This document shows positions 11,368-26,882 of a stretch of 53,080 bases of DNA, piece by piece. The notes under the pieces are model-generated. The model ran no database searches. It was not told the origin of the DNA and was given only the letters and a program-made list of their open reading frames with translations. Every line of letters starts with the position of its first letter. Position 1 is the first letter of the stretch. The DNA comes from a virus. Location: IMG/VR virus record IMGVR_UViG_3300046642_000190, positions 1 through 53,080 of that record; one strand, written 5' to 3'. The translations under genes and the position numbers were made by a program.

Positions 11368-11728
11368 CCCGGACGACGTACCCAACATGCGCGAGTCCCA
11401 CAGGGGGAGGGTTTCATATCCAATCCTGAAGTCCTTCCTCGAGACGGGCTACATCATGGCCAAACTGGACCGTACTGGTATGCAGCAGTCCATGATGTCG
11501 TTGAACTCGAGTCTCGGTGCCTACATCAGGAGCCACGGTCTTCCTATCAAGTTGTTCCAACGCAAGGGGGAGATCTACCTGATGAGGTTGGACCTCAACC
11601 CAGACGGTACCGAGAACCCGAACTGGAAAGAAGATCTGGACGAGTTCAAGGTGCAGAACGCAACACCGATCGACGCTGACGAAGTTGCCCGACGCTTCGC
11701 CGAAGAGAAGGGTCAGGTCACGAAGTGA
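11348..11728 (+). CDS. Hypothetical DNA-binding-like protein, 126 residues
   Basis: The ATG follows GGGAGGAGGTGAATAAGCTCA, inside the end of the upstream gene (20-base overlap). Possible winged-helix look (ILKSFLETGYIMAKLDRTGM...LPIKLFQRKGEIYLMRLD). Unknown; GTGA overlap with the next gene. Confidence 0.65.
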   Translation: MKFEPVSPDDVPNMRESHRGRVSYPILKSFLETGYIMAKLDRTGMQQSMMSLNSSLGAYIRSHGLPIKLFQRKGEIYLMRLDLNPDGTENPNWKEDLDEFKVQNATPIDADEVARRFAEEKGQVTK

Positions 11729-12375
11729 AAGTCCTTGTGGTCTGCGCACAGCGCTACAATGGCCACGAACTCTGGACCGCTCTCGGTGTGATGCAGGAAG
11801 CCGGTCTGGAGTTCGACGTAGCCTCGACCATGTACATGATCGAGGACGAAGTAACCGGACAGTCGAACACCATCAAGCTCACCCTGGACGACATCGAGCC
11901 CGAGGAGATCGACCACTACGACGGCCTGATGTTCGTTTCAGGCAACATGGCGGACACCGAGAAGTACTGGCACCTTGAAAGGACACTTGCCTATGTACAA
12001 GTGGCTAAGAGGGCTGACATGGCGTTGGCTGCGATATGCTGCTCCGTACCTACGATCCGACATGCAGCAAGTGGTAAAGTCGTATCGTTCTTCCCGCTTG
12101 TACGGAGCAGGCAGCTCCTCAAAGACGCCGGTGCTATCCTGTCCACTGTGTCAATCTCCGTTGACGAGAAACTGGTAACGGCGGAGCACCAGATGTCGTC
12201 CCAGATGTGGGCGACGTACTTTAGCAACGTAGTCAAGGGTGAGACGCCAGGTATCGCTCTTGTTGACTCAGGGTTCGTACCTGGCAAGGGCAGTCCACGC
12301 AAGCCGATCCCGGAAGTCGAGTACGTGAAGCGGAGGTGGGCCGATGGGAACGATGCACGATCTGATGCTGGATGA
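11725..12375 (+). CDS. DJ-1/PfpI-like protein, 216 residues
   Basis: GTG start in a GTGA overlap. Rossmann-like start (KVLVVCAQRYNGHELWTAL), a YDGLMFVSGN turn near residue 66 and a nucleophile elbow LAAICCSVPTIR with Cys105/Cys106. This is the layout of the DJ-1/PfpI class I amidotransferase-like superfamily, whose members act as glyoxalases, chaperones or proteases. The exact reaction cannot be told. Coupled to genes that lead into the SWIM/SNF2 pair. Confidence 0.6.
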   Translation: MKVLVVCAQRYNGHELWTALGVMQEAGLEFDVASTMYMIEDEVTGQSNTIKLTLDDIEPEEIDHYDGLMFVSGNMADTEKYWHLERTLAYVQVAKRADMALAAICCSVPTIRHAASGKVVSFFPLVRSRQLLKDAGAILSTVSISVDEKLVTAEHQMSSQMWATYFSNVVKGETPGIALVDSGFVPGKGSPRKPIPEVEYVKRRWADGNDARSDAG

Positions 12376-18210: not shown

Positions 18211-20400
18211 TTGCCAGTCATCGGTATCAGTAAGGAAACCAACGCCAAGCGGGAAGCATTCTTCCGTGCCATCTTTGGTGACGCAGCTGGATATGTCTGC
18301 CTTGCATGGGGCAAAGGTAAGGGTAACTGGCACCAGGAGTTCTTCAAGTACCCGGAACAACTTCCGACCATCCTTGAGACAGTCAACCGTAACTATGTCG
18401 GCAAGAACGTATACTTCTGTCCCCAGCTACTGAAGGGTCACCAACGGGAGAAGGAAGATGTCGACGTCTGTACATGTATATGGGCTGACCTCGACGAGTG
18501 CGATCCACGTGTACTCGAACCCAAACCGTCTATCGTACTACAGTCAAGTCCAGGTAGGTGGCAATCGTTCTGGCTCCTGAACAAGAGGACAGATCCACTC
18601 GACGCTGAAGATGCGGCTCATCGTATCGCTTGGAAGTACAAGGAATACGGCATCGACCAAACTGGTTGGGACCTTAGCCAGATGCTGCGAGTGCCTCTGA
18701 CATACAACGTCAAGTACGAGCGGACTGGTGAGATTCCTAACGTCGAGTTGGTATCCTGGGAGAATCTCGTCTACAGCATCGACGACTTCAGAGCACTACC
18801 TCCAGTTCCAGGTTACGAGTTCGTTGATGAACCGATTCCAGACCTCACAGGTATTGATCCAGACGAACTGTTCAAACGTTACCGCATGCAGCTTTCACAA
18901 CGGGTCCATGAACTGTACAGCACAGTGCCTCGGAAGGATTGGAGCACAAGTCTTTGGGCTCTGGAGATGGAGCTGTTAGAAGCCGGTCTCAGTAAGGCTG
19001 AGACCTTCGTCATCTGCCGTAACGCAGCATGTAACAAGTTCCGCAGAGACGGACTGCCCGAACACCACCTGTGGAAAGATGTCGGAAGAGCCGCGGTTCG
19101 ACTAGTAAACCGTCAACAAGACTTCATACCTGGTACACCATTGCCTGAGATACTCACCGAAGCTGAGTGGGCAATCGTCAAGGCACTACCGGACACGTTC
19201 ATAGAAAGGTTCACAGCATGGGCGAAGACAAGAGGCGACGCAGCCCCGCAGTACTTCCAAGCTGGCGCGTTGACTATATTGTCCCACCTGTTGAGTTCAG
19301 TTGTGAAGTTGCCTACCTCATTTGGCACTATGACCTTGAATCTCTGGTTCATGATCTTAGCCGACACGACCCTGACGCGCAAGTCGACCGCCATGGAGAT
19401 GGCGATGGACTTACTTATCACTGTGGATCCGGACGCTATTCTGGCTACGGATGGTTCCTTGGAGGGCCTGATGTCCGCCATAGCATCCCGACCGAACCGC
19501 AGTGGTATCTTCTGGCGCGACGAGTTCAGCGGACTCTTGGAAGCCATCGCGAAGAAGGACTACTATGCTGGTATGTTGGAAGTCTTGACGAAGATGTACG
19601 ATGGGAAGTACCAGAAGCGTATCTTGCGAAAGGAGACGATTGAGGTACGTGACCCAATCCTCCTGATCTTCTGCGGAGGTATCAGGAACCGGATTCTCGC
19701 TGGCATGACTGCAGAGCATGTCTATTCCGGTTTCGTACCTAGGTTCATCTTCATCGAGGCGGAGTCCGACATCAACGACTTCAAGGCAATCGGCCCGATG
19801 ACCGATGCACACGATGCTGACGAGTCGAGGCTCCTGGTTGAAATAGAACACTTCAAGGACATGTATGACGCCGAGATCATCCTACACATAGGCGAACAGG
19901 AAGTCAAGTCAAAGCGTATCTGGAATGCGAAACTGACTCCTGAGGCCTGGCTCCGTTACAACGACCTAGAGAAGACCATGGTCAAGTACGGTGTTGAGTC
20001 TAACAACCCAGAGATGTACACACCACTCTTTGACCGCCTTAGTAAATCGGCACTCAAGACTGCGGCCCTGATATCCGCTGCGCGCAAAGACCCACAGGCC
20101 GCGGACGTCATAGTCGAGGTACAAGACATACTCAGGGCTGCCAGTTACATGATCGACTGGGCGAAGTACGCAGTCGATGTAGTGGAGAACGTAGGTAAGA
20201 CAGTCTCCGAACGACGTATCGAACAGGTCGGAAGGTACATTGCACGTCACAATGGCGTCAGTCGATCACGCCTCATGCAGAACTTCCACCTGACAGCACG
20301 TGATGCTGAAGGAGTACTGGAGACGCTTGACCAGAGGGGTATGATTCGGAGGGTGCGAAATGGCAAGGGGGAGAATCTCTTTCCTGCTGTACTCAGTTGA
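18211..20400 (+). CDS. Primase-helicase-like protein, 729 residues
   Basis: A TTG follows GGAGGAGTGGGGA. The N-terminal part has WADLDECDP (near 90) and QSSPGRWQSFW, as in archaeo-eukaryotic-type prim-pol domains. The middle (330-560) is DUF3987-like, with ADTTLTRKST in place of a normal P-loop (near 384) and WRDEFSGLL as Walker B (near 433). The end is a winged helix (HNGVSRSRLMQNFHLTARDA). Predicted primase and replicative helicase. Confidence 0.75.
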   Translation: MPVIGISKETNAKREAFFRAIFGDAAGYVCLAWGKGKGNWHQEFFKYPEQLPTILETVNRNYVGKNVYFCPQLLKGHQREKEDVDVCTCIWADLDECDPRVLEPKPSIVLQSSPGRWQSFWLLNKRTDPLDAEDAAHRIAWKYKEYGIDQTGWDLSQMLRVPLTYNVKYERTGEIPNVELVSWENLVYSIDDFRALPPVPGYEFVDEPIPDLTGIDPDELFKRYRMQLSQRVHELYSTVPRKDWSTSLWALEMELLEAGLSKAETFVICRNAACNKFRRDGLPEHHLWKDVGRAAVRLVNRQQDFIPGTPLPEILTEAEWAIVKALPDTFIERFTAWAKTRGDAAPQYFQAGALTILSHLLSSVVKLPTSFGTMTLNLWFMILADTTLTRKSTAMEMAMDLLITVDPDAILATDGSLEGLMSAIASRPNRSGIFWRDEFSGLLEAIAKKDYYAGMLEVLTKMYDGKYQKRILRKETIEVRDPILLIFCGGIRNRILAGMTAEHVYSGFVPRFIFIEAESDINDFKAIGPMTDAHDADESRLLVEIEHFKDMYDAEIILHIGEQEVKSKRIWNAKLTPEAWLRYNDLEKTMVKYGVESNNPEMYTPLFDRLSKSALKTAALISAARKDPQAADVIVEVQDILRAASYMIDWAKYAVDVVENVGKTVSERRIEQVGRYIARHNGVSRSRLMQNFHLTARDAEGVLETLDQRGMIRRVRNGKGENLFPAVLS

Positions 20401-20692
20401 CCCTGGCTGGCATGACTACGCCAGGTGCAATACCGATGAGACAGTTGACCCTAACCTCTTCTACCCGTCGAGCGGTCACCCTGACACCGCTGCTAAGGCA
20501 GTAAAGTTCTGTGAGCCATGTCCAGTGAAGATGGAGTGTCTCGCGTTTAGTATCGCTACAAGGCAACGGTATGGAGTGTGGGGAGGGATGGTCGAAAGCA
20601 AACGGCGGAAGATGTTCAACATGACCCCGAAGCAGAGAAAGGAGTTCCTGGATGCCCAAGGCAGTAGTACTGCTGAGCGGCGGGTTGGATAG
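20360..20692 (+). CDS. whiB: WhiB-family iron-sulfur transcription factor, 110 residues
   Basis: Cys23, Cys51, Cys54 and Cys60 (CEPCPVKMEC) and the YGVWGGM turn (71-77) are the WhiB signature. The protein binds a 4Fe-4S cluster and acts on sigma factor region 4. The family is found in actinobacteria and their phages, which fixes the host group. Its start lies 41 bases inside the primase gene, and its end overlaps queC by the same length. It may modulate host or phage transcription. Confidence 0.9.
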   Translation: MARGRISFLLYSVDPGWHDYARCNTDETVDPNLFYPSSGHPDTAAKAVKFCEPCPVKMECLAFSIATRQRYGVWGGMVESKRRKMFNMTPKQRKEFLDAQGSSTAERRVG

Positions 20693-21344
20693 CACAACCT
20701 GTCTGGCAATCGCACTTGAGCACCACGGGTTCGAACCGAAAGAGATCATCGGTCTGAACATCGACTACGGTCAGAAGCACCGTGTCGAACGGAAGGCAGC
20801 CTTCGAGGTTGCTGCACACTACAACCTTGGCAAGATGGCCGAGATTGACCTCGACCCGATGGTCTTCAAGTCGGTCGAGTCAAGCCTAACCGGTGGGGCT
20901 GAGATGCCTCACTTGACCTACAAGGAGATTGCGGAGGGAGAAGGTGTTAGTCCGACTTACGTTCCGTTCAGGAATGGTAACCTACTCAGCACTGCTGCCT
21001 CCCTTGCCCTTGTCGAAGGCGCAGGTGCAATCTATTTCGGAGCACATGCAGAAGATGCAAGAGGCTGGGCATATCCTGACTGCACTCCCGAGTTCATCGG
21101 CTCTATGGCCTCCGCTATCTACATCGGGTCTTACCATCGAGTGCGACTTGTCACACCTGTCGAGTGGATGATGAAGCACGACATCGTAGCTGTCGCGACA
21201 CAGATCGGTGCCCCACTTCATCTCACACTGTCCTGCTACGAAGGACTTCGTCCCGCTTGCGGCAAGTGCCCGACCTGTGTCGAGCGCCTTGCAGCCTTCG
21301 AGACCAACGGTCTCACCGACCCGATCGAGTACGCCCGTGTTTAG
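20652..21344 (+). CDS. queC: 7-cyano-7-deazaguanine synthase QueC, 230 residues
   Basis: PP-loop SGGLDST at 9-15 and a C-terminal zinc site (SCYEGLRPACGKCPTC). Converts 7-carboxy-7-deazaguanine to preQ0 with ATP and ammonia. First of a run of preQ0 genes with overlapping ends, so one coordinated message is likely. Full length for the family. Confidence 0.93.
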   Translation: MPKAVVLLSGGLDSTTCLAIALEHHGFEPKEIIGLNIDYGQKHRVERKAAFEVAAHYNLGKMAEIDLDPMVFKSVESSLTGGAEMPHLTYKEIAEGEGVSPTYVPFRNGNLLSTAASLALVEGAGAIYFGAHAEDARGWAYPDCTPEFIGSMASAIYIGSYHRVRLVTPVEWMMKHDIVAVATQIGAPLHLTLSCYEGLRPACGKCPTCVERLAAFETNGLTDPIEYARV

Positions 21345-21684
21345 GATCGGGAAGACGGTTAGGTTCGCAGCTGCTCACCATCTCTCACAACTACCGGCGG
21401 ACCACAAATGTCACCGACCTCACGGACACAACTACGAAGTGTACGTCGAACTCGAAGCGAAGGACCTTGACCGGGATGGCTTCGTACTTGACTACGGCGT
21501 CATCAAGGACGTCATCATGAAGTACGACCATCAGGACTTGAACGAGATGCTCGACTTCTTTCCGACCGCAGAACAGCTAGCCAAGTTCTTCTGGGTGGAG
21601 ATCGTTGAACGCCACCACACCGCTCGCAATGTCATCGTCCTGGTCAAGGAGACGGATGACTCGTTTGCGGAGTACCGCGAATGA
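21337..21684 (+). CDS. queD: 6-carboxytetrahydropterin synthase QueD, 115 residues
   Basis: A GTG overlaps the queC stop by 8 bases. Zinc ligands AAHH (14/15) and C-x3-HGH (Cys25, His29, His31) are intact. Makes 6-carboxytetrahydropterin from dihydroneopterin triphosphate, the second preQ0 step. Confidence 0.92.
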   Translation: MFRIGKTVRFAAAHHLSQLPADHKCHRPHGHNYEVYVELEAKDLDRDGFVLDYGVIKDVIMKYDHQDLNEMLDFFPTAEQLAKFFWVEIVERHHTARNVIVLVKETDDSFAEYRE

Positions 21685-22034
21685 CGTACGCGTTCCAGAT
21701 CGCAGGGAACTCTGACGTGCTGAGCATCTCTGCGACGCACGATGCCTGTATCGTGTTCCCCACGTTCAAACACGCATTGAACGACTGGCCCATTCTTCGT
21801 GACTGGTTCGATGCTGACCACAAGACTTGGTGCACGGTGAAGACCAAGACGGCGATCGTTACGAGATGCAACCATCGAGTGCTCCGCTTGTGGATTCCGG
21901 TCAGCACGAGGAACCGAACGACAGGTGCAGAGATACCGATGGACTCCATCTACGAACGACTGAAGGGTCAGTTCTGGTACTTCAGTCAGTACTTCAACCG
22001 ACGGGAGTTGATTGACTTGGTGGAGACGACATAA
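21681..22034 (+). CDS. Orphan protein inside the preQ0 operon, 117 residues
   Basis: ATGA overlap with queD and a one-base overlap with queE, so it is translated as part of the pathway run. Contains TKTAIVTRCNHRVLRLWIPV and an aromatic end (GQFWYFSQYFNRRELIDL). No Cys/His site like QueF (no E-S-x-S-x-K or QYDMD-like motif seen). Could be an accessory factor for modification or an unrelated passenger; not recognised. Confidence 0.7.
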   Translation: MTYAFQIAGNSDVLSISATHDACIVFPTFKHALNDWPILRDWFDADHKTWCTVKTKTAIVTRCNHRVLRLWIPVSTRNRTTGAEIPMDSIYERLKGQFWYFSQYFNRRELIDLVETT

Positions 22035-22720
22035 TGCTTCGGCTGAGCGAACTGTACACCAGCGTCCAGGGTGAAGGACCTAACGTTGGAACAGTTACCA
22101 CGTTCGTTCGGTTCGCAGGCTGCAACATGCGTTGCCCGGGTTGGCCGTGCGACTCTGCATACGCCATCTACCCGGAGATCTACACGAAAGAGGCCGAGTG
22201 GGTCAAGCCCGAAGACATCCTGGCACGGCTGAAGGGAGAGCCCTCGAGGAACGTGACTCTTACAGGAGGAGAACCCTTCCTGCAGCGTGATGATGACCTT
22301 CAGGAGTTGGCGCTCGAGTTCTGGCGCAGGGGCTACTCGGTTGACATCTTCACAAACGGGTCACGCATCTTCCCGAACTGGGTCTTCTCTCCAAGGGTCA
22401 CTGTCATCATGGACTGGAAACTCAAGGGCTCAGGTGAGGCCTCTACGGGGTTGAGCAACCGGCAGATAAACCGACACCAACTTTCCTTCAAGGATGCCGT
22501 CAAGTTCGTAGTCAAGGACCTAGACGATATGCGAGAGGCGCAAGATCTTCTCACCCTGTGGGGAGAAGCACCCGTTCACCAGGTGTACATGGGCCCAGTG
22601 TGGGGCGCAATCGAACCTGCCGAGCTGGTCGCCTTCATCAAGGAGCACGGGATGTACGCCTGCAAACTGAACCTGCAGACCCACAAGTACGTCTGGCCGG
22701 CTGAGGAAAGGGGCATCTAG
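22034..22720 (+). CDS. queE: 7-carboxy-7-deazaguanine synthase QueE (radical SAM), 228 residues
   Basis: Starts LSELYTSVQGEGPNVGT, typical of QueE. Cluster motif GCNMRCPGWPCD has Cys30, Cys34 and Cys39, i.e. C-x3-C-x4-C with two extra residues compared with the usual C-x3-C-x2-C. TLTGGEPFLQ follows. Rearranges 6-carboxytetrahydropterin to CDG. One-base overlap with folE. Confidence 0.9.
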   Translation: MLRLSELYTSVQGEGPNVGTVTTFVRFAGCNMRCPGWPCDSAYAIYPEIYTKEAEWVKPEDILARLKGEPSRNVTLTGGEPFLQRDDDLQELALEFWRRGYSVDIFTNGSRIFPNWVFSPRVTVIMDWKLKGSGEASTGLSNRQINRHQLSFKDAVKFVVKDLDDMREAQDLLTLWGEAPVHQVYMGPVWGAIEPAELVAFIKEHGMYACKLNLQTHKYVWPAEERGI

Positions 22721-23295
22721 TGGTAGCGATGTCCGCAAGAGCTATTGCCCTCATGGATGCACTTGAAGGCGTACTGAAGCAGATCGACTCTGAGTGGGAA
22801 GAGCATCCTCACTTGCGAGGTACGCCTCAACGGGTTGCACTCATGTACGACGAAATGCTCATTCAACCTTCCCACTTCACCTTCACTACGTTCATCAACA
22901 AGGACGTTGACCAGATGATCGTCCTCCGTGACTTGTACTTCTACAGCCTGTGTGCTCACCACATGTTGCCCTTCCATGGACACGCCCATATCGCTTACAT
23001 CCCAGCCGGGAAGCTCGCAGGACTCTCCAAGTTCGCACGTGTAGTTGATCACTTCAGCCGAGGGCTCAACATCCAGGAAGAGCTCACGAAGGACGTGATG
23101 AACTTCTTGGAGGAGCAGCTCGAACCGAAGGGCGTCGCTGTCGTACTCGAAGCTGAGCATCTCTGTATGAGCATGCGAGGCATCCAACGTCCAGGACATC
23201 TCACAACCACTTCAGGCATGACTGGTGTGTTCCTAGACACAAGTAAGGGCGCTCGGCAGGAGTTCCTGTCGCTCATTGGGAGAAACCATGGCTGA
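22720..23295 (+). CDS. folE: GTP cyclohydrolase I FolE, 191 residues
   Basis: GTG start sharing a base with the queE stop. Zinc site CAHHMLPFHGHAH (Cys78, His80, His81) and the late Cys in AEHLCMSMRG match GTP cyclohydrolase I. Converts GTP to dihydroneopterin triphosphate, feeding QueD. A phage copy lifts flux into preQ0. Confidence 0.93.
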   Translation: MVAMSARAIALMDALEGVLKQIDSEWEEHPHLRGTPQRVALMYDEMLIQPSHFTFTTFINKDVDQMIVLRDLYFYSLCAHHMLPFHGHAHIAYIPAGKLAGLSKFARVVDHFSRGLNIQEELTKDVMNFLEEQLEPKGVAVVLEAEHLCMSMRGIQRPGHLTTTSGMTGVFLDTSKGARQEFLSLIGRNHG

Positions 23296-23626
23296 GATGC
23301 TACCAAGCCCGAAACTTATGCTTACTGGTTACCATGCAAGATCTCATACACGTACAAACGGTTGTGTTGAAGCAGGGTGTCAACCTGACCTAGACATGAT
23401 CGACCATCCACCCCACTATCACCAAGGCAAGTTCGAGTGCATTGACGTTATCGAGGACCTGGGACTGAACTTCAACCTCGGGAACGTGCTCAAGTACGTC
23501 TGGCGACATGACCAGAAGAACGGACTCGAGGACCTGAAGAAGGCACGTTGGTGTCTTGACCGGGAGATCAAGGGGAGGGAAGAACGAGTTGCAAGCAGCC
23601 ATCCTGGCACCGACCGCATTACTTGA
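23288..23626 (+). CDS. DUF3310 protein, 112 residues
   Basis: The ATG at 23288 overlaps folE by 8 bases. The core HPPHYHQGKFECIDVIEDLG and GNVLKYVWRHDQKNG is the DUF3310 pattern; T7 gp1.7 of this group is a nucleotide kinase. It may act in nucleotide metabolism next to the modification genes. Confidence 0.8.
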   Translation: MAEMLPSPKLMLTGYHARSHTRTNGCVEAGCQPDLDMIDHPPHYHQGKFECIDVIEDLGLNFNLGNVLKYVWRHDQKNGLEDLKKARWCLDREIKGREERVASSHPGTDRIT

Positions 23627-24350
23627 GCGCTACGCGGTGACCAGTTATCACTTGGCGCTGGCTCACCTGGTGCTTGAGAATGACCAGTACAGGTACTTCT
23701 ATGCAGCACGCAAGCGTCAAGGTGACTTCCTGATTATGGACAACTCCGTCATTGAACTAGAAGACCCACTCCCCATTGCAGACTTACTGAAGGCAGTCAT
23801 AATGACTCGGGCAGACGAACTCGTGCTCCCAGACCACCCTTGGAACTCCAGAGCGACGCTGGAAGATGCCTACGTCTACGCTGGGTGGATGTGGAAGAAC
23901 AACCCGGACATCAACCTCATGGGGGTCCCACAGGGCGAGAACGTCGAAGACTGGATGCAATGCTTTGCTGACATGGTCCAGATACCTAACATCGACACAA
24001 TCGGTATTCCGAAGTCACTCGGAAGTAACCGACTGAAGGTGCTCAAGATGATTGACGACGCTCAACCGACACTTCCCCTGAAGGACTACCACCTACTCGG
24101 AACTTGGGGTAACCCGACCGAAGTCCAGTACGCATCGAACCATTACAGCTGGATCCGAGGCTGTGACAGCAAGATACCTGTGCGAGCCGGCCTTGCTGGT
24201 GTTCAGTTCCATCCTACGCAAGGACTTATAGCCAAGAGGGCCGAGATACCTTCCCTTGACTTCGACGCACTTGCCGATCCCTTTCCTATCATCACACAGT
24301 ACAACGTCAACCGGTTTATCAAGTGGGCACAGGGGGAGGTGCACCTTTGA
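23589..24350 (+). CDS. dpdA: DpdA-like DNA 7-deazaguanine transglycosylase, 253 residues
   Basis: A TTG at 23589 follows GGGGAGGGAAGAACGAG; an in-frame ATG at 23556 lacks a site. Features are FLIMDNSVIELEDP, LVLPDHPWNS, LMGVPQGE, TIGIPKSLGSNR and WIRGCDSKIP, which fit short phage DpdA proteins related to tRNA-guanine transglycosylase. Next to FolE-QueD-QueE-QueC it would exchange guanine for preQ0 in DNA. The exact specificity cannot be read from sequence. Confidence 0.8.
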   Translation: MQAAILAPTALLERYAVTSYHLALAHLVLENDQYRYFYAARKRQGDFLIMDNSVIELEDPLPIADLLKAVIMTRADELVLPDHPWNSRATLEDAYVYAGWMWKNNPDINLMGVPQGENVEDWMQCFADMVQIPNIDTIGIPKSLGSNRLKVLKMIDDAQPTLPLKDYHLLGTWGNPTEVQYASNHYSWIRGCDSKIPVRAGLAGVQFHPTQGLIAKRAEIPSLDFDALADPFPIITQYNVNRFIKWAQGEVHL

Positions 24351-24583
24351 CCGTTAGGGTGTTCGTCGACACTGTCGAGCTCGAGCGACGTGACATACCG
24401 AACGAGCAGAAGAAGCCAGTCCTCATTGTGTGGGAAGACGGCACTCGGGAGAAATACCGTCAGGTGAACATCGGGTTCGTGAAGGTCAAGTACTACCCAG
24501 AAGGGATAGCCGTAGGTGACGACCACATACGTGTGTGCGTCGAGACGGAGGAAGAGGAACTTGTCTACGTCCCTTACCCCTAA
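24347..24583 (+). CDS. Hypothetical protein, 78 residues
   Basis: A TTG in an overlap with dpdA, preceded by GGGGGAGGTGCACC. Beta-rich (VRVFVDTVELERRD, KKPVLIVWEDG). Overlaps the polymerase start by 23 bases. Possible single-domain partner of DpdA or the polymerase, by position only. Confidence 0.6.
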   Translation: MTVRVFVDTVELERRDIPNEQKKPVLIVWEDGTREKYRQVNIGFVKVKYYPEGIAVGDDHIRVCVETEEEELVYVPYP

Positions 24584-26882
24584 GGCCCCGCTGGCCGACT
24601 GTGAGCATTGCCCACTTCGGGATGAACCCTTTGCCCCTGGAATGGGTCCAGACAAGGTTGACCTAGCCATCGTCGGGGAAGCCCCTGGCTATGAGGAGGC
24701 AAAGCATGGAACCCCCTTCGTCGGGAAGTCAGGACAGCTCCTCACAGCCATCCTTCGAAATGCCGGGATCGACCGCGATACTGTCTGGGTCACGAATGTC
24801 TGTCTCTGTCGACCCCCAGGGAACGCGACGCCTTCGACTGCGGCTGTCAAGGCATGCCGACCTCGTCTTATTCAAGAGCTACAGGAACGGAGGCCTAACA
24901 CAGTTCTGGCACTTGGCAATACGGCAGCCAAGACCCTCCTGGACACGCGTACTGGCATTACTGAACTTCGGAAGATCCCGGACTCCAAGTCCTACGACCT
25001 CCCTGGAGTTAGGATTCTTCCTACCTTCCATCCCGCGGCCGCTCTCCGTTCGCCTGATATGCTCCCTTCCATCATTGCCGACGTCGCGAAGGTCAACAGG
25101 ATCCAAGTCGGTTGGGAAGACACCAAGTACAAAGTCGCCGAGTCAGTCGACCAGGCCATCCAGCTCCTCAACAAGCAGGTCCAAGCATCACGGACCCTAG
25201 TACTTGACATCGAACTGGAGATCGACGAGAAGTTCCGACGGTACGATCCCAAACGGCCGAACTGGTTGTGCTTCGCAATCTCCCACAGGCCAGGGGCGTC
25301 TGTTGTCTACCCGCGTGAAGTCATCATGGACCCAACCTTTCGGCATTGGGCACAGGCCGCCTTCGAGAACCCAGACATCTCCTGGGACGGACAGAACATG
25401 AAGTTCGACGTTGAACACACCTGGGAGATCGCTCCGAAGATGAAGGTTGGCGGGTGTACGATGTTGAGACACTACGCCACGGACGAGAGGAAGGGTACTC
25501 ATGACCTTGAACAACTTGCTGTGGAGCAGTTGGGTGCGCCGCGTTACAAGACTGATACACGACAGTACTTGCCATACAAGGGGGCCCCACTGTCATACCT
25601 TCCACGTGACATACTTCATCAATACAACGCAGCAGACGCTGATATCACACACCGACTCATACAGCCTCTGAACCAACAGATGGAAGAAGACGGGGTCACT
25701 AGCATGTACAATACTCTGATGGTCCCGGGTAGTAATGCACTTGCCCCTGCTGAATGGTGGGGCGTCAAGTTGGACAAGGAGTATCTACAACGTGTAGGTG
25801 ACGACCTTCAGGTAGAGATGCGCGGTCAGGAAGTTGGACTGGCTGAATACGTAGGCAACCCAAGGTCACCACAACAGGTGAAGGCAGTACTAGAAGACCA
25901 GCTTGGGATGCCCCTCGAATCGACCGACAAGGACCACCTGAAGGTCATCATCGAGAAGTACGGAGGGAACGATGCCGCCGTCTTCGCCGAGAAGCTCCTT
26001 GAGTACCGTTCGAATCACAAACTGTACTCTACGTACGTCAAGGGTACCTTCAGTCATCTGGTCAGGGGTAGAGTCCATCCTACGTTCCTACTCCACGGAA
26101 CTGAAACTGGTCGACTTAGTTGTCGTCGCCCCAACCTCCAGAACATTCCGTCTGGATCCACAATCCGAGACGCCTATATGGCCGGCCCTGATAATATACT
26201 CCTCAGTGCTGATTACAGTCAGATCGAGTTCAGGCTTGCCGCTATCTTCGCGGGCGACGAGAAGTGGATTGCCGAGTTCAAAGCAGGTCGCAGCTTCCAT
26301 AAGGAAGTGGCTCTGCGGTACTATGGCGCTAACTACACTGACCTCCAGTATCTCCGCGCAAAGGCGGTCAACTTCGGAATCCTCTACGGACGAGGAGCAG
26401 GATCGCTAGCCGCCGAACACAAGATGAACTACAGTGATGCACAGCGACTCATCACTAACTTCTTCGCTGCGTACCCGAAGGTAAAGCCATGGCAGAACAA
26501 CCTGCAACGTCAGATCCGAGAGAGGGGGTACCTTGAGTCGTACTACGGGCGGAAACGGCGCTTCTGGCTCGTCACGAAGGACAACTGGCACGTCGTCAGC
26601 AAAGAAGCCCTCAACTTCCCCCTCCAATCAACTGCATCAGATCTTACTCTTCTCAGCCTTATCCGGCTTGTCCCCCTCCTCGGTAATCGGGCGATCCCTG
26701 TCATCACGGTGCACGATAGTCTTGTATTCGAAGTGCATAAGTCAGATCTCCGAGATGTTGCGATACTGGTCAAGGAAGTAATGGAGGACACACCGTTCAA
26801 GGATATCTGCCCTACCCCCGTTGAACTGAAGGTTGGTCAGCGTTGGGGCAAACGTTCACTCGAGCTCCTGGAGGTAGCCTGA
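24561..26882 (+). CDS. polA: Uracil-DNA glycosylase / DNA polymerase I fusion, 773 residues
   Basis: A TTG follows GAGGAAGAGGAAC. Residues 1-185 are a family 4/5-type UDG: CEHCPLR, VGEAPGYEE, VTNVCLCRPP and TFHPAAALR, with Cys placed as for an iron-sulfur cluster. Residues about 205-390 are a 3-5 exonuclease (LVLDIELE near 213, NAADADITHRL). Residues 525-770 are a family A polymerase with TGRLSCRRPNLQNIP, DYSQIEFR (near 550), AKAVNFGILYG (near 600) and VHDSLVFE (near 717). All key acids are present. Predicted replicative polymerase with built-in uracil removal. Confidence 0.88.
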   Translation: MSTSLTPKAPLADCEHCPLRDEPFAPGMGPDKVDLAIVGEAPGYEEAKHGTPFVGKSGQLLTAILRNAGIDRDTVWVTNVCLCRPPGNATPSTAAVKACRPRLIQELQERRPNTVLALGNTAAKTLLDTRTGITELRKIPDSKSYDLPGVRILPTFHPAAALRSPDMLPSIIADVAKVNRIQVGWEDTKYKVAESVDQAIQLLNKQVQASRTLVLDIELEIDEKFRRYDPKRPNWLCFAISHRPGASVVYPREVIMDPTFRHWAQAAFENPDISWDGQNMKFDVEHTWEIAPKMKVGGCTMLRHYATDERKGTHDLEQLAVEQLGAPRYKTDTRQYLPYKGAPLSYLPRDILHQYNAADADITHRLIQPLNQQMEEDGVTSMYNTLMVPGSNALAPAEWWGVKLDKEYLQRVGDDLQVEMRGQEVGLAEYVGNPRSPQQVKAVLEDQLGMPLESTDKDHLKVIIEKYGGNDAAVFAEKLLEYRSNHKLYSTYVKGTFSHLVRGRVHPTFLLHGTETGRLSCRRPNLQNIPSGSTIRDAYMAGPDNILLSADYSQIEFRLAAIFAGDEKWIAEFKAGRSFHKEVALRYYGANYTDLQYLRAKAVNFGILYGRGAGSLAAEHKMNYSDAQRLITNFFAAYPKVKPWQNNLQRQIRERGYLESYYGRKRRFWLVTKDNWHVVSKEALNFPLQSTASDLTLLSLIRLVPLLGNRAIPVITVHDSLVFEVHKSDLRDVAILVKEVMEDTPFKDICPTPVELKVGQRWGKRSLELLEVA

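What the first reader, a model, noticed from the sequence alone, without database searches (positions are those of the whole stretch)
20652..24350. Complete preQ0 pathway plus DpdA-like gene: predicted 7-deazaguanine-modified phage DNA
FolE, QueD, QueE and QueC with intact motifs lie in one overlapping run with a DpdA-like transglycosylase. No QueF or amidotransferase is visible, so dPreQ0 rather than dPreQ1 or dG+ is expected. Known family biology says such bases protect phage DNA from restriction enzymes.
Basis: partly seen in the sequence, partly recalled or inferred. Interest (0 to 1): 0.8.

Follow-up and report, generated by a model that had tools for sequence, protein, structure and literature searches.

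The report
Phage operon for 7-deazaguanine-modified DNA
This uncultured bacterial virus carries genes to build a guanine look-alike and, very probably, an enzyme that swaps it into its own DNA, a known kind of phage disguise against restriction enzymes, here with an enzyme from a little-annotated branch of the family.

Summary
QueC, QueD, QueE and FolE lie in one overlapping + strand run with intact catalytic motifs.

The 23589 protein matches no Pfam or NCBIfam family. Its predicted fold (pLDDT 96.5) matches only tRNA-guanine transglycosylases among the 50 listed PDB hits. Its family profile has one significant PDB sequence match, a DNA-guanine transglycosylase (7ui4). Of 91 viral loci with a relative, 86 also carry preQ0 genes. 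A DpdA-type enzyme is well supported.

It is neither the CAjan type nor DpdA2 of phage nt-1. Its profile groups with Campylobacter phage CP220 (about 99 bits, against 2 and 7). CP220 DNA is reported to have every G replaced by dADG, and CP220 has QueC but no QueF. So lacking QueF and amidotransferase does not by itself predict dPreQ0. I keep dPreQ0 as most likely, because this QueC has all canonical motifs and CP220's lacks two. dADG and near-complete replacement remain live alternatives.

Small kinase, MazG or DUF3310 genes cluster beside this enzyme (21/74 ORFs against 12/433 elsewhere), so modification at the nucleotide level is not excluded. New member of a known kind.

The parts
20652..21344 (+). 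QueC, 7-cyano-7-deazaguanine synthase
   Evidence: PF06508 E 3e-56, TIGR00364 above cut-off; all canonical motifs
21337..21684 (+). QueD, 6-carboxytetrahydropterin synthase (GTG start overlapping the end of queC)
   Evidence: PF01242 E 2e-25; CxxxHGH and HH zinc ligands; start read from sequence
21681..22034 (+). 117-aa protein of unknown function between QueD and QueE, conserved only in the window's clade
   Evidence: No phage database match; present in 12 related loci; dN/dS about 0.17; model pLDDT 75 with no PDB match
22034..22720 (+). QueE, 7-carboxy-7-deazaguanine synthase (radical SAM)
   Evidence: TIGR03963 E 2e-48, below cut-off; phrog_2076 QueE E 4e-35; CxxxCxxxxC and GGEP
22720..23295 (+). 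FolE, GTP cyclohydrolase I
   Evidence: PF01227 E 5e-56, NCBIfam FolE subfamily above cut-off
23288..23626 (+). DUF3310 protein (PHROG: nucleotide kinase family)
   Evidence: PF11753 E 2e-15; phrog_236 E 5e-32
23589..24350 (+). DpdA-type guanine transglycosylase of the CP220 branch; H26, D51-N52, E56, D82, Q115-G116, H168, G171 and D193 (putative nucleophile)
   Evidence: AF2 pLDDT 96.5; the 50 listed PDB fold matches are TGT; 7ui4 E 8e-4; CP220 E 3e-29
24323..24583 (+). small unknown protein (start uncertain, perhaps near 24347) overlapping the transglycosylase end; homologue in L010
   Evidence: 41% identity in L010
24516..26882 (+). DNA polymerase A with N-terminal family 4 uracil-DNA glycosylase domain, next to the operon (start uncertain)
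   Evidence: PF00476 E 6e-78, PF03167 E 3e-30; PolA found in 71 of 91 loci with the transglycosylase

Best explanation
The run is a phage DNA hypermodification operon. FolE, QueD, QueE and QueC turn GTP into preQ0. The TGT-fold enzyme at 23589-24350 then breaks the glycosidic bond of guanine in phage DNA with its Asp193 as nucleophile and exchanges the base for the 7-deazaguanine. The phage DNA carries 7-cyano-7-deazaguanine (dPreQ0, most likely), or less likely its amide precursor (dADG), at a high and possibly complete fraction of G, which should shield it from host restriction enzymes. Shown: the genes, motifs, predicted fold, conserved gene cluster and the enzyme's branch. Inferred: DNA rather than tRNA or nucleotides as substrate, the identity of the base, the extent, and the protective role.
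For: Complete preQ0 gene set with motifs. The predicted fold matches only TGTs among the 50 listed PDB hits, E 3e-8 to 1e-6. The family profile's only significant PDB sequence hit is the DNA-guanine transglycosylase 7ui4; D193 aligns with Asp280 of Zymomonas TGT and is invariant in 52 sequences. 86 of 91 loci with a relative carry preQ0 genes. The profile finds the relative in CP220 (E 3e-29), whose DNA is reported fully 7-deazaguanine modified (PMC8306585, PMC10273834). In CAjan, deleting dpdA removes dPreQ0 and restriction resistance (PMC6884629).
Against: No biochemistry on this enzyme branch was available here. Structure comparison alone cannot tell DNA from tRNA substrate. CP220, with QueC and no QueF, is reported as dADG rather than dPreQ0. 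Nucleotide kinase genes nearby fit a nucleotide-level route. QueD and QueE fall below NCBI equivalog cut-offs.
Confidence: 0.75

Rival explanations
1. Same operon and DNA modification, but the base that ends up in DNA is the amide (dADG), as in CP220, because this enzyme branch or this QueC favours ADG or because preQ0 is hydrated.
For: CP220 has the same enzyme type, QueC (E 7e-47) and no QueF, and is reported with 100% dADG (PMC8306585). A DJ-1/PfpI protein of unknown role is in the window.
Against: CP220 QueC lacks the YxQxHxxE motif and has FPDC for YPDC, while the window QueC keeps both; in E. coli QueC, changing the Tyr of either motif to Ala abolished preQ0 formation, and the YPDC Tyr-to-Phe change left partial activity (PMC13329287).
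Confidence: 0.2
2. The enzyme acts on the nucleotide pool: it makes a 7-deazaguanine deoxynucleotide that a partner kinase completes and the co-located polymerase incorporates, giving a genome without ordinary G.
For: Small P-loop kinase, MazG or DUF3310 genes beside this enzyme type: 21 of 74 ORFs against 12 of 433 elsewhere, p 1.7e-11. Complete G replacement in CP220. PolA is nearby in 71 of 91 loci. Bacterial relatives sit with a nucleoside phosphorylase-like and a thymidylate kinase-like gene.
Against: TGT-family enzymes act on polymeric nucleic acid. The loci are not independent, and nucleotide genes are common near phage polymerases. From memory, Cui et al. 2023 conclude that insertion is post-replicative.
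Confidence: 0.1
3. The transglycosylase modifies tRNA, and the operon supplies queuosine precursors to boost translation.
For: The fold is TGT and the best structure matches are tRNA enzymes. Queuosine supply was proposed for phages with preQ0 genes but no DpdA (PMC6884629).
Against: At 253 aa the protein is over 100 aa shorter than the solved TGTs. There is no QueF to make preQ1 for a bacterial TGT. The 52-sequence profile reaches DpdA 7ui4 but no TGT at E up to 1. The relative in CP220, whose DNA is reported fully modified, points to DNA.
Confidence: 0.06

Closest known systems
Bacillus phages BSP7/BSTP and Weizmannia phage Youna2 preQ0 clusters
   Same: Same order: primase, QueC, QueD, QueE, FolE, transglycosylase, UDG-type DNA polymerase A
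   Different: About 30% identity in the transglycosylase; no DUF3310 or 117-aa homologue was found there; polymerase in two pieces; the protein is annotated hypothetical
Campylobacter phage CP220 and other firehammerviruses (reported 100% dADG)
   Same: Same transglycosylase branch (E 3e-29), QueC present, no QueF
   Different: Deeply diverged (24.6% identity, long branches); the transglycosylase and queC lie about 45 kb apart; QueC lacks two canonical motifs; family B polymerase beside queC
Flavobacterium phage immuto, Cellulophaga phages phiST and phi19:2
   Same: Same transglycosylase branch within FolE-QueD-QueE clusters; called DNA guanine transglycosylase in immuto
   Different: immuto adds QueF; no QueC was detected in phi19:2
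Group 2 phages of Hutinet 2019 (CAjan, Rosebush), dPreQ0 at 28-32% of G
   Same: FolE, QueD, QueE, QueC and a DpdA-type enzyme without amidotransferase (PMC6884629)
   Different: CAjan DpdA carries DSGAFSA and HxG motifs and scores only 1.8 bits with the window family profile; Rosebush was not in the collections searched
DpdA2 of Vibrio phage nt-1
   Same: TGT-like protein within a preQ0 gene cluster
   Different: 464 aa; 6.6 bits with the window family profile and no meaningful BLAST match

Membership tests
preQ0 biosynthesis pathway (FolE, QueD, QueE, QueC) | All four enzymes with catalytic motifs | tested here: met
   QueD and QueE below NCBI equivalog cut-offs but with motifs
TGT superfamily | TGT TIM-barrel fold with catalytic Asp | tested here: met
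   fold matches; D193 aligned with Asp280, invariant in 52 sequences
DpdA (DNA-guanine transglycosylase) | Inserts 7-deazaguanine into DNA | not testable with these tools
   Needs mass spectrometry or an assay; context and the 7ui4 match support it
CAjan-type DpdA | Profile similarity to CAjan-type DpdA | tested here: not met
   1.8 bits forward; the reciprocal CAjan-type profile gives no score above 3 bits to this branch; hhalign probability 22%
DpdA2 (nt-1) | Sequence relatedness to YP_008125322 | tested here: not met
   6.6 bits; no match in a whole-record search
CP220-type branch (DpdA3 in my memory of Cui 2023) | Profile relatedness to the CP220 protein | tested here: met
   98.1 bits, E 3e-29; the name could not be checked, the paper is not held
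CP220-type branch (DpdA3 in my memory of Cui 2023) | Complete replacement of G | not testable with these tools
   Needs nucleoside analysis
dPreQ0 phages (Hutinet group 2) | No QueF, Gat domain or ArcS | tested here: met
   PF14489, PF13522, PF00117, PF17884 absent; the record may be a fragment, and a DJ-1/PfpI protein is present

The most novel reading that the evidence does not exclude
This enzyme branch works on the nucleotide pool: it converts a guanine nucleotide to a 7-deazaguanine nucleotide, partner kinase, MazG or DUF3310 proteins process it, and the co-located polymerase builds a genome with no ordinary guanine, analogous in logic to 2-aminoadenine (Z) phages.
Probability: 0.1. Interest if true: 0.8.

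Novelty: new member of a known kind. Interest (0 to 1): 0.42.

Why it matters
It adds a large, mostly unannotated set of uncultured phages (125 related loci in one scan) to the 7-deazaguanine-modified phages. It ties them to the enzyme branch of a phage reported to replace every G, and it names cultured relatives (BSP7, Youna2) on which base, extent and protection can be measured. It also shows that the rule predicting the base from QueF and amidotransferase gene content has an exception in this branch.

Tried and rejected
Scanning viral contigs with the single transglycosylase found nothing; a seven-phage alignment was too diverse to scan with; a closer alignment worked. Rosebush could not be fetched, so it was compared only through the literature. 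QueF-family hits in Youna2 and BSP7 lie inside their FolE genes (T-fold cross-match) and were rejected. The 117-aa protein gave no structure match. Classification of CP220-type enzymes as DpdA3 rests on memory; the paper is not in the library. A glutamine amidotransferase at 11725-12375 was considered and not accepted: only DJ-1/PfpI matches, PF00117 does not. hhalign between this family and CAjan-type DpdA aligns the motifs in register but at 22% probability, so it was not used as proof.

Full report
WHAT IS THERE. The window is a 53,080-base IMG/VR virus record with tailed-phage structural genes on the - strand (terminase, portal, capsid, tape measure) and replication genes on the + strand. 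A tight + strand run holds QueC (20652-21344), QueD (about 21337-21684), a 117-aa unknown (21681-22034), QueE (22034-22720), FolE (22720-23295), a DUF3310 protein (23288-23626), a transglycosylase-like protein (23589-24350), a small unknown, and a family A DNA polymerase with an N-terminal uracil-DNA glycosylase domain (24516-26882). Two ORFs inside the run were not listed.

PATHWAY ENZYMES. FolE and QueC pass curated NCBIfam cut-offs (FolE subfamily models; QueC equivalog TIGR00364). QueD (82.5 against 89.25 bits) and QueE (165 against 260) do not, but these are their best assignments and both carry their motifs. QueC carries every canonical motif listed for true QueC in PMC13329287, with seven rather than eight residues in the first zinc-site gap, as in Youna2. 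No QueF, class II or class I glutamine amidotransferase, ArcS or preQ0 transporter domain is in the record. A DJ-1/PfpI protein at 11725-12375 is the only loosely related fold.

THE TRANSGLYCOSYLASE. Pfam and NCBIfam give nothing. tblastn finds 17 phage records at under 35% identity, among them immuto phages annotated DNA guanine transglycosylase. An alignment-based scan found 125 relatives in IMG/VR, of which 80 were kept. A 52-sequence alignment leaves L24, H26, D51, N52, E56, H168, G171 and D193 invariant. AlphaFold2 on that alignment gave pLDDT 96.5 and pTM 0.92, and all 50 listed PDB structure matches are tRNA-guanine transglycosylases at E 3e-8 to 1e-6. The family profile against all PDB sequences has one significant hit, the DNA-guanine transglycosylase 7ui4 (E 8e-4). 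D193 aligns with the catalytic Asp280 of Zymomonas TGT (residue role from general knowledge). Of 91 loci with a transglycosylase hit (a minority of them CAjan-type), 86 hold at least one preQ0 gene and 71 a PolA; the five without are contigs where little upstream sequence is held or matched. Window against L010 dN/dS is about 0.06-0.2 in the five genes tested, with synonymous sites near saturation. Together these make a DpdA-type enzyme well supported. That it acts on DNA is inference.

WHICH BRANCH. The family profile scores CP220 about 99 bits, immuto 130, phi19:2 105, Youna2 193 and BSP7 163, but nt-1 DpdA2 only 6.6 and CAjan DpdA 1.8; the reciprocal CAjan-type profile also fails to reach it. 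A tree places the window firmly with L010 and five other viral contigs; deeper forks, including the place of CP220 with immuto, are weakly resolved. Hutinet 2019 had listed Campylobacter phages as possibly modified without DpdA (PMC6884629). Firehammervirus DNA is reported with complete replacement of dG by 7-deazaguanine derivatives (PMC10273834), CP220 and CPt10 specifically by dADG (PMC8306585). The CP220 relative found here (54675-55451, annotated hypothetical) is therefore the likely enzyme there. From memory, Cui et al. 2023 (NAR) named a full-replacement branch DpdA3; that paper is not in the library, so the name is a lead, not a test.

WHICH BASE. The gene-content rule (no QueF, no amidotransferase, hence dPreQ0) holds for CAjan and Rosebush at 28-32% of G (PMC6884629). 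CP220 has QueC (E 7e-47), no QueF and this enzyme type, yet dADG. CP220 QueC lacks YxQxHxxE and has FPDC for YPDC, while the window QueC keeps both. I therefore rank dPreQ0 above dADG, but not as settled.

NUCLEOTIDE-GENE NEIGHBOURS. Beside this enzyme type, small P-loop kinase, MazG or DUF3310 ORFs make up 21 of 74 ORFs, against 12 of 433 elsewhere in the same loci (Fisher p 1.7e-11; 20 of 38 loci; families). The loci are related to each other and polymerase neighbourhoods attract such genes, so this is a lead toward nucleotide-pool handling, not proof.

VERDICT. Observation confirmed. Interpretation partly supported: a 7-deazaguanine DNA modification operon with a CP220-branch, not CAjan-type, transglycosylase. 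The base is probably dPreQ0, possibly dADG, and replacement may be near complete. It is a new member of a known kind.

Noticed in passing
L107-L134 (actinobacterial chromosomes), e.g. L107:7947-13506 and L110:8213-14409: 28 actinobacterial genomes (Streptomyces, Amycolatopsis, Nonomuraea and others) carry QueE-FolE and a transglycosylase of this branch (24-28% identity), 27 of them also QueD, none with a QueC detected; sampled loci continue with a phosphorylase-like, a thymidylate kinase-like, a DUF2797 and a methyltransferase gene. The cluster's function is unclear.
   Followed up: partly
38 loci among L010-L103, around the transglycosylase gene: Small P-loop kinase, MazG or DUF3310 genes are enriched beside this transglycosylase (21/74 against 12/433 ORFs).
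   Followed up: partly
window 21681-22034: 117-aa protein with no known relatives outside this phage clade, always between queD and queE and under purifying selection.
   Followed up: partly
L010:239-769: In the closest relative, queC is interrupted by an HNH endonuclease ORF (phrog_5046 E 1e-15), so it may hold an intron or intein.
   Followed up: no
window 24516-26882: Family 4 uracil-DNA glycosylase domain fused to DNA polymerase A, matched over the same span in BSP7 and, apart from the first residues, in Youna2.
   Followed up: no
window 11725-12375: DJ-1/PfpI family protein of unknown role in a phage that makes a nitrile base.
   Followed up: partly
window 20360-20692: WhiB-like transcription factor gene overlapping the start of queC, which points to an actinobacterial host.
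   Followed up: no
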